The position numbers and the translations under genes are program-made. Shown here piece by piece: positions 42,737 to 45,825 of a stretch of DNA of 64,000 nucleotides; the first letter of the stretch is position 1; every line of letters begins with the position of its first letter. Under the pieces are notes generated by a model that ran no database searches, was not told where the DNA came from, and saw nothing but the letters and a program-made list of their open reading frames with translations. This stretch comes from Cellulomonas sp. APG4 (GTDB lineage Bacteria > Actinomycetota > Actinomycetes > Actinomycetales > Cellulomonadaceae): assembly GCF_009996735.1 (NCBI RefSeq), contig NZ_JAACYI010000002.1, positions 186,001 through 250,000 on the forward strand. The letters run 5' to 3'.

Positions 42737-43582
42737 TCACCGGTCCACGACCGCCCCGGTCACCCACCGCACGACGTCGTCGGCGACGACGTTCGGGTCG
42801 ATGACCTGCAGATGGTCGACGCCAGGGTAGGTGACGACGGTGACCTCGTGCCCCGCCTCGTGCAGCGCCGCCCCGAAGTCGTCGGTGAGCGCCTGCGGCA
42901 CCACCGCGTCGTCCTCGCCGTGCACGAGCAGGAACGGCACCTCGGGACGCTCCGACACCCAGGTGAGCGGGTTGCCGTCGGCCCACAGCTCCGGTTCCTG
43001 GCTGCGAGGCGCGTCGAAGAGCGCTCCCGCGACGGGCCCGACGCGCTCGACGTCGTACGGTCCGGCGAACCCGACCACGGCGTCGGCGTCGTGCGCGGGT
43101 GCGGCGCAGGCGGCGCCCTGGTCGGGGGCGAGGGCCGCGAGCGCCGCCAGGTGCGCTCCGGCCGAGTGACCGAGGAGCACGACGGGGACGTCCGGGACGC
43201 GCGCGGCGGCGAAGGCCGTCGCGCACGTGAGGTCCTGCACCGGGACCGGGTGGTGGTCGCCGGTGCCGTCCGTGCCGTAGGTGACGGTCAAGGTGGCGAG
43301 CCCGGCACTGCCCAGGGCGTCCGCGAGCACGTGCATGCCCGCCGGGTCGGCCGACCGCCACGAGCCACCCGGGACGAGCACGACGACCGCGTCGGGCCCC
43401 GCGGGCACCTGGAGCCTGCCGGCCCTGCCCGTGCGGTACTCGACCTCCGCCACGACGACCTCGGCTCGCGCGCCGTCGCCCGGCGGGCCGCCCTCGGCCC
43501 CCTCACCGGTGCAGGCGGCGACGCCGGCCACGAGCGCGAGGGCCAGCAACGCCGGGACGACGCGCCGTGCGCGAGGAGCCAT
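42737..43582 (-). CDS. Secreted alpha/beta hydrolase, probable lipoprotein
   Basis: 281 residues. Signal peptide (VVPALLALALVAGVAAC) ending in a plausible lipobox cysteine, then the alpha/beta hydrolase core: oxyanion strand VLVPGGSW, nucleophile in GHSAGAHLAAL, acid in VHGEDDAVVP and the late His in PGVDHLQVI. Resembles BD-FAE/carboxylesterase-like enzymes; the ester is unknown. ATG 43582 has no Shine-Dalgarno, but AAGACT ends six bases upstream (43589-43594), so the message may be leaderless. Divergent from the helicase gene across 44 bases. Confidence 0.85.
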   Translation of the reverse strand: MAPRARRVVPALLALALVAGVAACTGEGAEGGPPGDGARAEVVVAEVEYRTGRAGRLQVPAGPDAVVVLVPGGSWRSADPAGMHVLADALGSAGLATLTVTYGTDGTGDHHPVPVQDLTCATAFAAARVPDVPVVLLGHSAGAHLAALAALAPDQGAACAAPAHDADAVVGFAGPYDVERVGPVAGALFDAPRSQEPELWADGNPLTWVSERPEVPFLLVHGEDDAVVPQALTDDFGAALHEAGHEVTVVTYPGVDHLQVIDPNVVADDVVRWVTGAVVDR

Positions 43583-43626: not shown

Positions 43627-45825
43627 GTGCCCCGATCCGAGCCCGACGTCACCCAGCCGTCCTCGTCGCCGTCGACCGGCCTCGACGAACCCGCGGAGGG
43701 CGCTCAGCGCGCGGCCGCCGAGGAGGTGCTCCGCCGCCTCGTCGGGCAGCCCGAGGCGACCCTTCGCACCGACCAGTGGACCGCGATCGAGGCCCTGCTC
43801 GCGGGTCGGCGGGCCCTCGTGGTCCAGCGCACCGGCTGGGGGAAGTCCGCCGTGTACTTCGTCGCCACGGCGCTGCTGCGCGCCGCAGGGCGCGGTCCCA
43901 CGGTCATCGTGTCGCCGCTGCTCGCCCTCATGCGCAACCAGGTCGACGCCGCGCGGCGGGCCGGGATCCGTGCCGAGACGATCAACTCTGCGAACACCGA
44001 GGAGTGGGACGAGGTCCACGCACGCGTCGCGGCCGGAGAGATCGACGTCCTCCTCGTCTCCCCCGAGCGGCTCAACAACCCGGGCTTCCGCGACGAGGTG
44101 CTCCCCCGCCTCGCCGCAGGCACAGGACTGCTCGTGGTCGACGAGGCGCACTGCGTCTCGGACTGGGGTCACGACTTCCGCCCGGACTACCGACGGATCC
44201 GCACCCTGCTCGGCGAGCTGCCTGCCGGCACCCCCGTGCTCGCGACGACGGCCACGGCGAACACGCGCGTCACGGCCGATGTCGCCGAGCAGCTCGGTGC
44301 CTCGACCGCCGACGACGCCGGTGCCGTGACCGTCCTGCGCGGCGAGCTCGACAGGCCGAGCCTGCACCTGGCGGTACGCGAGCTCGACTCGCACGCGGCC
44401 CAGCTCGCGTGGCTCGCACGGACCCTGCCGACCTACGAGGGTTCGGGCATCGTGTACTGCCTCACGGTGGCCGCGGCCGAACAGGTCACCGCGCACCTCG
44501 CGGCCGCCGGTCTGACCGTGCGGGCCTACACGGGGCGCACCGACCCGGCCGAACGTCTCTCGTGCGAGTCCGACCTCCTCGAGAACCGGGTCAAGGCCCT
44601 CGTCGCGACGTCCGCCCTCGGGATGGGTTTCGACAAGCCCGACCTCGGCTTCGTGGTCCACCTCGGTGCGCCCGCCTCCCCCATCGCGTACTACCAGCAG
44701 GTGGGGCGCGCGGGCCGCGCCACGCACCGGGCCGACGTGGTGCTGCTTCCCGGCCGGGACGACCGTGCGGTCTGGGACTGGTTCGCCTCGATGGCGTTCC
44801 CGCCCGAGGCCGAGGTGCGTCGTGCGCTCACGGCTCTCCGCGAGGCGTCGGGGCCGATGTCGACGGCCGCGCTGGAACCGCTGGTCGACCTGCGGCGCAC
44901 GCGGCTCGAGCTGATGCTCAAGGTCCTCGACGTCGACGGGGCGGTCCGGCGCGAGCGCGGGGGCTGGGTGGCCACCGGGGCCGGGTGGGAGTACGACGCC
45001 GAGCGCTACGCCCGCGTGGAGGAGACCCGCCGCGCCGAGCAGCAGCTCATGCTCGACTACGTACGCACGCCCGGTTGTCGCATGGCCCACCTGCGCCGAG
45101 CTCTCGACGACCCCGGCATGGACGGCGCTCCCGACTGGCGGTGCGGCAGGTGCGACCGGTGCGGCGGGACCTCGGCGGCCGACGCTCCCGACGACGAGGC
45201 GATCGCCGTCGCCCGGGCCCGCCTCGCCGTGCCCGGTGTCGAGATCGCGCCGCGGCGACAGTGGCCGAGCGGCCTGGGCAGGCTCGGCCTCGGTCTCAGC
45301 GGTCGCATCCCGCCCGCCGAGCAGCACGCGCCGGGTCGCGCGGTCGCGCGCAGCGACGGACTGGGCCTGGGCGGCGTGGTCCGCGCCCTCTACGCACCGA
45401 CGGCCGAGCAGCGGGCCGTCGAGGTCCCTGACGCTCTCGCGCACGGCGTGATCGAGGTCCTCGAGGCGTGGCGTCCGGCCGTCGAGGGCGTGGTGCTCAT
45501 CCCCTCGGCGTCCCGTCCCGGACTCGTCGAGCACCTCGCGCGCGGGGCAGCGGGCCACCTCGGGGTCCCCGTGGTCGGTGAGGTCCGCCCTGATCCGGAG
45601 TCCCCTCCTGGTCGGCACGACGTCAACTCCGCCCAGCGGCTCGCAGGCGTGGGCCGAAGGCTCTCGCTCGCGCTGTCACCAGCGGCGCTCGAAGGGCTTC
45701 CGGGCCGACGGGTCCTGCTGGTCGACGACAGGGTCGACTCGGGCTGGACCATGACCGTGGCCGCGCGCCTGCTGCGGCGGGCCGGCGCCGCCGAGGTGCT
45801 CCCGCTCGCCCTCGCGCTCGGCTGA
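43627..45825 (+). CDS. recQ: RecQ-type DNA helicase fused to a C-terminal phosphoribosyltransferase domain
   Basis: 732 residues. Helicase core: variant Walker A TGWGKS (69-74, GGGKS in most RecQ), SPLLALM (motif Ia), DEAH at 172-175 inside VVDEAHCVSDWGHDFRPDY, TATAN (motif III), and motif VI YYQQVGRAGRA. A zinc knuckle follows near residues 490-513 (PGCRMAHLRRAL, then CGRCDRCGG). After about 570 comes a PRTase-like domain ending in a PRPP-loop-like VLLVDDRVDSGWTMT at about 697-711. GTG 43627 has no Shine-Dalgarno; AACACT ends six bases before it. Substrate of the PRTase part is unknown; such fusions occur in Actinobacteria. Confidence 0.92.
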   Translation: MPRSEPDVTQPSSSPSTGLDEPAEGAQRAAAEEVLRRLVGQPEATLRTDQWTAIEALLAGRRALVVQRTGWGKSAVYFVATALLRAAGRGPTVIVSPLLALMRNQVDAARRAGIRAETINSANTEEWDEVHARVAAGEIDVLLVSPERLNNPGFRDEVLPRLAAGTGLLVVDEAHCVSDWGHDFRPDYRRIRTLLGELPAGTPVLATTATANTRVTADVAEQLGASTADDAGAVTVLRGELDRPSLHLAVRELDSHAAQLAWLARTLPTYEGSGIVYCLTVAAAEQVTAHLAAAGLTVRAYTGRTDPAERLSCESDLLENRVKALVATSALGMGFDKPDLGFVVHLGAPASPIAYYQQVGRAGRATHRADVVLLPGRDDRAVWDWFASMAFPPEAEVRRALTALREASGPMSTAALEPLVDLRRTRLELMLKVLDVDGAVRRERGGWVATGAGWEYDAERYARVEETRRAEQQLMLDYVRTPGCRMAHLRRALDDPGMDGAPDWRCGRCDRCGGTSAADAPDDEAIAVARARLAVPGVEIAPRRQWPSGLGRLGLGLSGRIPPAEQHAPGRAVARSDGLGLGGVVRALYAPTAEQRAVEVPDALAHGVIEVLEAWRPAVEGVVLIPSASRPGLVEHLARGAAGHLGVPVVGEVRPDPESPPGRHDVNSAQRLAGVGRRLSLALSPAALEGLPGRRVLLVDDRVDSGWTMTVAARLLRRAGAAEVLPLALALG

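What the first reader, a model, noticed from the sequence alone, without database searches (positions are those of the whole stretch)
43627..45825. RecQ-type helicase carrying its own phosphoribosyltransferase domain
The last ~150 residues look like a PRTase fold with a PRPP-loop-like VLLVDDRVDSGWTMT, on top of a RecQ core with zinc knuckle and a changed Walker A (TGWGKS). A PRTase joined to a DNA helicase suggests that nucleotide salvage, PRPP sensing or nucleotide transfer is linked to repair. ComF proteins (PRTase-like, DNA uptake) give a precedent for such domains in DNA handling. The combination is known from annotation of Actinobacteria but I know of no established mechanism.
Basis: partly seen in the sequence, partly recalled or inferred. 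Interest (0 to 1): 0.6.

Follow-up and report, generated by a model that had tools for sequence, protein, structure and literature searches.

The report
RqlH-type RecQ helicase, antitoxin-less
The gene makes a DNA helicase with an attached phosphoribosyltransferase-like domain, a family already known as RqlH/PsyrT whose tail is the poisonous half of a toxin-antitoxin pair in some bacteria; here the antidote gene is absent and the tail lacks part of what the paired forms share.

Summary
The 732-aa ORF at 43627-45825 (+) is a RecQ core (TGWGKS, DEAH, four-Cys zinc knuckle) followed by a C-terminal PRTase-type domain (Pfam PF00156 above cut-off) in place of RQC/HRDC. It is not new in kind: it is a full-length member of the RqlH/PsyrT family (PADLOC PsyrT, 697 bits). 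Published work describes RqlH as a 3'-5' helicase and shows that in E. coli its PRTase domain is needed for genotoxicity unless held by the DprA-like partner RqlI (PMC4670107). The window shows no such partner, and the genome only a generic DprA-like match.

What I add concerns the published puzzle of why most Gram-positive RqlH live without RqlI. Among 149 aligned rows, five PRTase positions (DD..D of the PRPP loop, Q and N of the hood) are all kept in 11 of 11 RqlI-paired rows but in 2 of 129 orphans, the window among the 129. The position matching the E. coli toxicity residue D663 changed at least 24 times among 74 orphans on the tree, never among 11 paired rows. The window keeps DD..D and lacks the hood. 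Against this, the coupling test had too few events, and orphan loops are in one respect more canonical (G706). No fold prediction was possible.

The parts
43627..45825 (+). RqlH/PsyrT-family helicase-PRTase gene (GTG start, 732 aa; upstream in-frame GTG at 43567)
   Evidence: ORF; PADLOC PsyrT 696.7 bits over model 5-682 of 689
43768..44271 (+). DEAD/RecA1 domain, residues 48-215
   Evidence: Pfam; RecQ family TIGR00614 242.4 bits against cut-off 219.8
43831..43848 (+). Walker A TGWGKS, residues 69-74, a family signature
44140..44151 (+). DEAH box, residues 172-175
44431..44721 (+). Helicase_C/RecA2, residues 269-365
   Evidence: Pfam
45076..45162 (+). RecQ-type zinc knuckle, Cys484, Cys506, Cys509, Cys512
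   Evidence: sequence; each Cys kept in 146 of 149 aligned rows; Pfam RecQ_Zn_bind below its cut-off
45250..45312 (+). conserved family linker PR..WPSG...GRI leading into the PRTase region (residues 542-562)
   Evidence: alignments
45400..45822 (+). C-terminal PRTase-type domain (residues about 592-732; start approximate)
   Evidence: PF00156 above cut-off; weak matches to PRPP synthetase, HGPRT, APRT and ComF models, mostly over the PRPP loop
45490..45528 (+). probable PPi-loop region VVLIPSASRPGLV (residues 622-634)
   Evidence: placed by inference from the alignment; S627 kept in 124 of 129 orphan and 9 of 11 paired rows
45625..45663 (+). probable flexible loop/hood region NSAQRLAGVGRRL (residues 667-679); paired-type Q671 and N674 replaced by R and G
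   Evidence: 'hood' is inferred from position between PPi and PRPP loops
45715..45753 (+). PRPP loop LLVDDRVDSGWTM (residues 697-709) with D700, D701, D704 and W707

Best explanation
An orphan RqlH: an ATP-driven RecQ-like DNA helicase whose C-terminal PRTase-fold domain shares descent with the genotoxic effector of the RqlHI/PsyrTA toxin-antitoxin (and proposed anti-phage) systems. In paired systems RqlI, a DprA-like protein, binds the PRTase domain and restrains it (published). In the actinobacterial orphans, including this one, the hood positions shared by all paired members are lost and the position of the toxicity residue is unconstrained, so the domain most likely no longer carries out the toxic reaction. 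It is still under purifying selection, with W707 invariant, and probably serves as a ligand- or DNA-binding module of a housekeeping-type helicase. Shown here: family membership, absence of the partner beside the gene, residue pattern, purifying selection. Published, not shown here: helicase polarity, toxicity, RqlI binding. Inferred: loss of the toxic reaction in orphans, and a binding role in its place.
For: PsyrT model 696.7 bits end to end; 1011 and 1019 bits for two paired homologues. Partners of four homologues match PsyrA at 291-577 bits, while the best match in the window's genome is a DprA-like gene at 80.6 bits on another contig. 0 of 80 named actinobacterial loci show an RqlI-like match (some are cut by contig ends). 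Neighbours are hisD, hisC and dnaE, whose relatives lie near rqlH in 10, 10 and 8 of 80 named loci. Five-position signature 11 of 11 paired against 2 of 129 orphan rows. D704: 0 changes in 11 paired rows, at least 24 in 74 orphans. At columns invariant in paired rows, orphans change 10.3 times per column in the PRTase (25 columns) against 2.2 in the helicase (119 columns). dN/dS below 1 for both domains in all 37 disjoint pairs; PRTase above helicase in 34, equal to three decimals in 2, below in 1. W707 kept in 129 of 129 orphan rows.
Against: Phylogeny: pairing and signature each change only 4 times on the helicase tree, and the independent-pairs test had 2-4 pairs, not significant. The window keeps DD..D, as do 61 of 129 orphan rows, itself included. 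In one respect orphans are MORE canonical: G706 of the loop is G in 110 of 133 rows then classed as orphan but R in 7 of 10 paired rows. Pfam scores do not show decay: four of five paired C-terminal domains score 14.8-18.9 bits, one 41.9, and four orphans 20.5-32.2; an orphan profile also matches the genome's own PRTases better than a paired profile does (22.1 against 13.2 bits for the best, RqlH itself aside). Two orphans keep the full signature; their genomes each hold one DprA-like gene elsewhere at 32% identity, which I take for DprA but which could be a distant partner. The 11 paired rows include close relatives (L039, L185), and the partner in L039 is broken. 'Orphan' is a local label for most rows. 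Russell and Mulvey reported no major difference between orphan and paired RqlH. No structure.
Confidence: 0.48

Rival explanations
1. The orphan domain is still an active, toxic or modifying PRTase, restrained by another protein or by the helicase domain itself, and orphans act as stand-alone defence or DNA-damage effectors.
For: The window and 60 other orphan rows (61 of 129) keep D700, D701 and D704. In E. coli the helicase domain was proposed to help restrain the PRTase (PMC4670107, passages). PADLOC's PsyrT model matches at 697 bits.
Against: The hood positions are changed in most orphan rows (Q671 kept in 23 of 129, N674 in 32 of 129), and D704 is the most changed of the 25 PRTase columns that are invariant in paired rows. 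The gene's nearest scanned neighbours are hisD, hisC and dnaE, not defence genes.
Confidence: 0.24
2. A PRPP- or nucleotide-sensing regulatory domain: it binds PRPP or NMP without the toxic reaction and gates the helicase according to nucleotide supply.
For: The window keeps the PRPP loop, including the canonical G706 that most paired rows lack, and S627. ComFC binds PRPP and nucleotides, and PurR and PyrR are cited in the same paper as PRTase folds turned into regulators (PMC9005727, passages). The PRTase domain is reported as dispensable for M. smegmatis RqlH ATPase and helicase activity (PMC4670107, citing Ordonez 2012).
Against: A good part of the orphans lose acidic residues expected for Mg-PRPP binding (D701 kept in 104 of 129, D704 in 73 of 129); no ligand data; his-gene neighbourhood found in only about 10 of 80 loci.
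Confidence: 0.28
3. Nucleotide-salvage enzyme merely tethered to a helicase.
For: PF00156 match.
Against: The genome already has seven other PF00156 loci, read as standard salvage, synthesis and regulator genes; an invariant Trp stands in the loop.
Confidence: 0.04

Closest known systems
RqlH (Mycobacterium smegmatis MSMEG_5935; Ordonez, Unciuleac and Shuman 2012, known here only through citing papers)
   Same: RecQ-like core plus C-terminal PRTase domain; actinobacterial; no RqlI in that species according to PMC4670107
   Different: No defining difference found; the M. smegmatis sequence was not identified in my set and the paper is not held
RqlHI of E. coli F11 / PsyrTA of Pseudomonas syringae
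   Same: Same full-length architecture; PsyrT model covers residues 28-730 of the window protein
   Different: Those have a DprA-like partner gene (in F11 directly downstream, published); the paired relatives that I read keep the full hood plus DD..D signature. The window has neither partner nor hood
ComFC (with ComFA and DprA) of natural competence
   Same: PRTase domain working beside a helicase-like ATPase; comF or GntX models match weakly in the window and in 3 of 5 paired domains scanned
   Different: Separate small protein with its own zinc finger; its loop reads DDIITTGTTL (PMC9005727) where the window has DDRVDSGWTM
ShosTA
   Same: DprA-like antitoxin system named beside rqlHI in PMC9122126 (passage); four RqlI proteins also match ShosA at 81-100 bits
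   Different: PRTase not fused to a helicase (from recall)

Membership tests
RqlH/PsyrT | RecQ-family ATPase core | tested here: met
   TIGR00614 242.4 bits over cut-off; best PDB matches are RecQ
RqlH/PsyrT | C-terminal PRTase domain in place of RQC/HRDC | tested here: met
   PF00156 above cut-off; no RQC/HRDC listed up to E 10; PsyrT profile end to end. By sequence only, no fold model
RqlH/PsyrT | Family Walker A TGWGKS | tested here: met
   144 of 149 aligned rows TGWGKS, the window included; signature status is my own observation, and the pattern TGWGK helped to find some rows
RqlH/PsyrT | 3'-5' translocase and helicase activity | not testable with these tools
   published for M. smegmatis RqlH, seen only as cited
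PsyrTA / RqlHI toxin-antitoxin system | DprA-like partner gene directly downstream | tested here: not met
   downstream is convergent hisD; genome-wide best PsyrA-model match 80.6 bits on another contig
PsyrTA / RqlHI toxin-antitoxin system | PRPP-loop DD..D, including the residue matching D663 needed for toxicity | tested here: met
   D700, D701, D704 present; mapping of D663 by motif in a plasmid homologue, not in F11 itself
PsyrTA / RqlHI toxin-antitoxin system | Hood Q and N shared by the paired rows read here (my own criterion) | tested here: not met
   R671 and G674 in the window; Q and N in 11 of 11 paired rows
PsyrTA / RqlHI toxin-antitoxin system | Toxicity when expressed alone | not testable with these tools
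   needs expression in a laboratory strain
Canonical RecQ | RQC and HRDC domains | tested here: not met
   none listed; recQ equivalog TIGR01389 265 bits against cut-off 640; a separate RecQ-like 704-aa ORF lies on contig C6, which I read as the canonical RecQ without scanning it
ComFC | stand-alone PRTase with N-terminal zinc finger | tested here: not met
   fused to helicase; comF model 22.8 bits against cut-off 233.55

The most novel reading that the evidence does not exclude
Actinobacterial orphan RqlH proteins are disarmed effectors: a helicase-PRTase toxin lost the need for its DprA-like antitoxin because the toxic pocket decayed (hood positions, and the D663-type position many times over), while the helicase and a Trp-centred surface were kept for a housekeeping DNA role. 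This would explain why nearly all Gram-positive RqlH live without RqlI, and it predicts toxicity from a five-residue signature.
Probability: 0.4. Interest if true: 0.55.

Novelty: new member of a known kind. Interest (0 to 1): 0.35.

Why it matters
The domain fusion is known and has published names, so the finding itself is ordinary. What matters is the open question that the 2015 authors left: how bacteria tolerate RqlH without RqlI, and what the PRTase does. The paired/orphan residue signature makes this testable with a handful of expression constructs and may help to tell likely-live from likely-disarmed RqlH genes when defence systems are annotated; PADLOC's PsyrT model alone matches the window's orphan at 697 bits and an archaeal orphan at 817, beside 1011 and 1019 for two paired proteins.

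Tried and rejected
Those are modest: the C-terminal profile reaches PDB PRPP synthetases at E 2.4e-5, over the PRPP loop only, and a more diverse profile only E 0.005. Pfam scores of nine homologous C-terminal domains range from 14.8 to 41.9 bits, with 2 of 9 over the cut-off.

DpdF (7-deazaguanine defence) was considered because several PADLOC DpdF models score up to 326 bits; rejected because PsyrT scores 697 end to end and the NCBIfam DpdF equivalog scores 137 against a cut-off of 550. Phage origin: 0 of 30 matching phage records cover 80% of the protein; of 49 viral-contig loci, 2 (L185, L186) match over the full length; a scan with the Nostoc protein gave no relative. Four viral loci (L185-L188) went into the paired/orphan analysis, two of them dropped as fragments; the other 45 were not examined further.

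Formal coupling test: independent pairs on the tree, not significant. A rough estimate of the chance of no change on the paired part, by branch length or with the helicase-column ratio as yardstick: D704 0.0013 and 0.007; D701 0.027 and 0.067; position 674 0.005 and 0.019; position 671 0.06 and 0.12. These treat parsimony changes as independent; only the D704 position has an independent reason to be tested, from the literature.

A literature search for RecQ with 'phosphoribosyltransferase domain' returned nothing; the PADLOC hit led to the right names. PMC13316683 only cites the RqlH paper in the passages seen.

Full report
WHAT IS THERE. The ORF 43627-45825 (+) is open from a GTG and encodes 732 residues. 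Pfam finds DEAD (82.3 bits), Helicase_C (59.7) and, at residues 645-724, Pribosyltran PF00156 (32.6 bits, cut-off 26.3); no RQC or HRDC is listed up to E 10. It passes the cut-off of the RecQ-family model TIGR00614 (242.4 against 219.8) but not of the recQ equivalog (265 against 640). The best solved relatives of the core are RecQ helicases. Four cysteines form the expected zinc knuckle (146 of 149 rows at each), although Pfam's RecQ_Zn_bind stays below its cut-off. The PRTase region with its linker runs from about residue 542 to the end.

WHAT IT IS CALLED. The PADLOC model PsyrT matches residues 28-730 with 696.7 bits. From there the literature opens. Russell and Mulvey 2015 (PMC4670107; I read the abstract, section 15, part 1 of the Discussion and passages) describe E. 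coli RqlH, a homologue of M. smegmatis RqlH (Ordonez, Unciuleac and Shuman 2012, not held), as a RecQ-like helicase with a PRTase domain. Without its partner RqlI, a protein with a DprA-like region, RqlH activates SOS, filaments cells and raises mutation. Deleting the PRTase domain, or changing D663 to Ala, removes most of this; the PRTase domain alone is not toxic. RqlI co-precipitates with full-length RqlH but not with RqlH lacking the PRTase domain. They note PsyrT/PsyrA of P. syringae as orthologues, draw the ComF parallel, report that 99.6% of Gram-positive bacteria in their set encode only RqlH, which they found surprising, and say that they 'did not detect major differences' between RqlH with and without RqlI. 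PMC5512222 (passages) places the helicase-PRTase fusion with DprA beside ComFA/ComFC. [quoted passage not shown] PMC8790059 (passages) lists PsyrTA with a RecQ toxin. So the fusion, its toxicity and the ComF link are known.

THE WINDOW'S COPY. Flanking genes are hisD (convergent, 456 bits), hisC (606 bits with its best model), dnaE (1542 bits) and, upstream, a gene with a weak esterase match (46 bits against a cut-off of 700). None of the five flanking ORFs that I scanned is DprA-like. Genome-wide, the PsyrA model's best match is 80.6 bits on another contig, against 291-577 bits for four partner genes found beside homologues; PsyrA also rings in 12 of 14 control genomes, so weak matches look like generic DprA. 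The PsyrT model's second-best match in the genome, 296.9 bits over model 10-361 only, is the 704-aa RecQ-like ORF on C6. In 80 named actinobacterial loci fetched with the family alignment (the best 80 of 587), the window's hisD and hisC relatives lie near rqlH in 10 each, dnaE in 8 and the esterase-like gene in none: a resident chromosomal position in some relatives (Cellulomonas, Demequina, Georgenia, Promicromonospora and others). None of the 80 shows an RqlI-like match.

SPREAD. The C-terminal domain finds matches at E up to 0.001 in 177 of 396 genomes of the phylum. Many of the weaker ones align only over the PRPP loop and are probably other PRTases, so the true count of RqlH genomes is lower; I did not count it. 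In plasmid records 11 of 255 matching records cover at least 80% of the query, among them Nostoc, Sinorhizobium, Acinetobacter, E. coli and a halophilic archaeon. Where annotation was read, the gene sits directly before a DprA gene in Nostoc, inside a BREX operon with DprA in Acinetobacter, and between type I restriction subunits with DprA in an E. coli plasmid. Sinorhizobium has a partner that reads in two frames, that is, broken. The archaeal, Streptomyces and Arthrobacter plasmid copies show none.

PAIRED AGAINST ORPHAN. I aligned 149 helicase rows of at least 600 aa, the window included: 11 with an RqlI-like gene in the stretch (one of them, L039, broken), 129 with at least 1.5 kb downstream and none (the window is one), 9 undetermined. 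Using window numbering, paired and orphan: D700 11/11 and 124/129; D701 11/11 and 104/129; D704 11/11 and 73/129; Q at 671 11/11 and 23/129; N at 674 11/11 and 32/129; N667 11/11 and 125/129; S627 9/11 and 124/129; W707 11/11 and 129/129. All five of D700, D701, D704, Q671 and N674: 11/11 and 2/129 (L137, L151). In the genomes of those two, one DprA-like gene each lies elsewhere (32% identity). Of the paired fragments left out, L125 and L148 show the same signature and L248 did not match my motif search. One difference runs the other way: position 706, Gly in classical PRPP loops, is R in 7 of 10 paired rows and G in 110 of 133 others (an earlier and looser split). D704 corresponds to E. coli D663 by the shared motif DIVD: in the E. 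coli plasmid homologue it is the last D of VDDIVDSGWT; the F11 sequence itself was not fetched. The same position is the Asp of VEDIIDSG in the genome's own HGPRT-like protein, where from recall it is the catalytic base. The window protein reads D, D, D at the loop and R, G at the hood: loop intact, hood not.

IS IT MORE THAN ANCESTRY? On a tree of the helicase core alone (90 rows, 11 paired and 74 orphan), D704 changes 0 times among paired (tree length 8.14) and at least 24 times among orphans (25.41). At the 25 PRTase columns invariant in paired rows, orphans average 10.3 changes and 12% stay invariant; at the 119 helicase columns invariant in paired rows, 2.2 changes and 51%. D704 is the most changed of the 25. 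So the PRTase has lost more constraint in orphans than the helicase has. But pairing and signature each change only 4 times on the tree, and the independent-pairs test (2 pairs on starred branches, 4 on all) cannot reach significance (84 rows); the tree was a quick one, with long branches for L041, L042, L156 and L147. The direction of change is not shown; that the paired type is ancestral is my guess, from a recalled likeness of its hood to ComF and weak comF/GntX matches in 3 of 5 paired domains. Nor do general profiles show decay: Pfam scores of four orphan domains (20.5-32.2) exceed those of four of five paired ones (14.8-18.9; the fifth 41.9). In 37 disjoint pairs of actinobacterial rows (the window in one), dN/dS is below 1 for both domains; PRTase is above helicase in 34, equal in 2, below in 1 (NG86, rough at this G+C). 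The domain is therefore kept, with less constraint than the helicase.

MECHANISM. Most likely (0.48): an orphan RqlH whose helicase does ordinary DNA work while the C-terminal domain, a toxic effector in paired relatives, no longer carries out that reaction and serves as a binding module around the invariant W707. Rivals are a PRPP sensor (0.28) and a still-active enzyme restrained otherwise (0.24); the intact loop of this copy leaves both open. ComFC offers the nearest structural precedent: it binds PRPP and nucleotides, has affinity for ssDNA and needs its PRPP-binding site in vivo (PMC9005727, abstract and passages).

LIMITS. No fold prediction. The PRTase assignment by sequence is above the cut-off for this protein but marginal for many homologues (7 of 9 below the Pfam cut-off). 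Orphan status is local for most rows. Rows were found partly by the patterns TGWGK and DEAHC, which favours members that keep them. Literature was searched in one open library, and only passages or sections of the papers named were seen; in those I met no report of the orphan/paired residue difference, which does not mean that none exists.

Noticed in passing
L042 3980-7509; L243 2998-6515: Paired rqlH-rqlI operons are embedded inside other defence operons: between pglX and pglZ (with a DUF262 gene) of a BREX locus in an Acinetobacter plasmid, and between the S and R subunit genes of a type I restriction locus in an E. coli plasmid.
   Followed up: partly
L041 3965-6046: A haloarchaeal plasmid carries a full-length PsyrT-family protein (817 bits) with no RqlI-like match in the stretch; it keeps much of the paired-type hood but has G in place of the D704-equivalent.
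   Followed up: partly
L039 6052-7480: Sinorhizobium pSymB: a stretch without listed gene after rqlH encodes an RqlI-like protein in two frames, that is, a broken partner beside an RqlH that keeps the full signature.
   Followed up: partly
L127, L153, L161, L162: A small orphan clade of one genus code (g81) keeps hood Q and N but has H at the D704 position and G, A or V at D701.
   Followed up: no
window 45745-45747 (W707): A Trp in the PRPP loop is invariant in 11 paired and 129 orphan rows although neighbouring positions drift; its role is unexplained.
   Followed up: partly
window 45742-45744 (G706): The loop Gly of classical PRTases is Arg in 7 of 10 paired (toxin-type) rows but Gly in most others: the toxin-type loop itself is unusual.
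   Followed up: no
G000 whole genome: Eight PF00156 loci were found at E up to 0.001, RqlH included, none of which I read as a stand-alone ComF; a ComF below that threshold was not looked for.
   Followed up: partly
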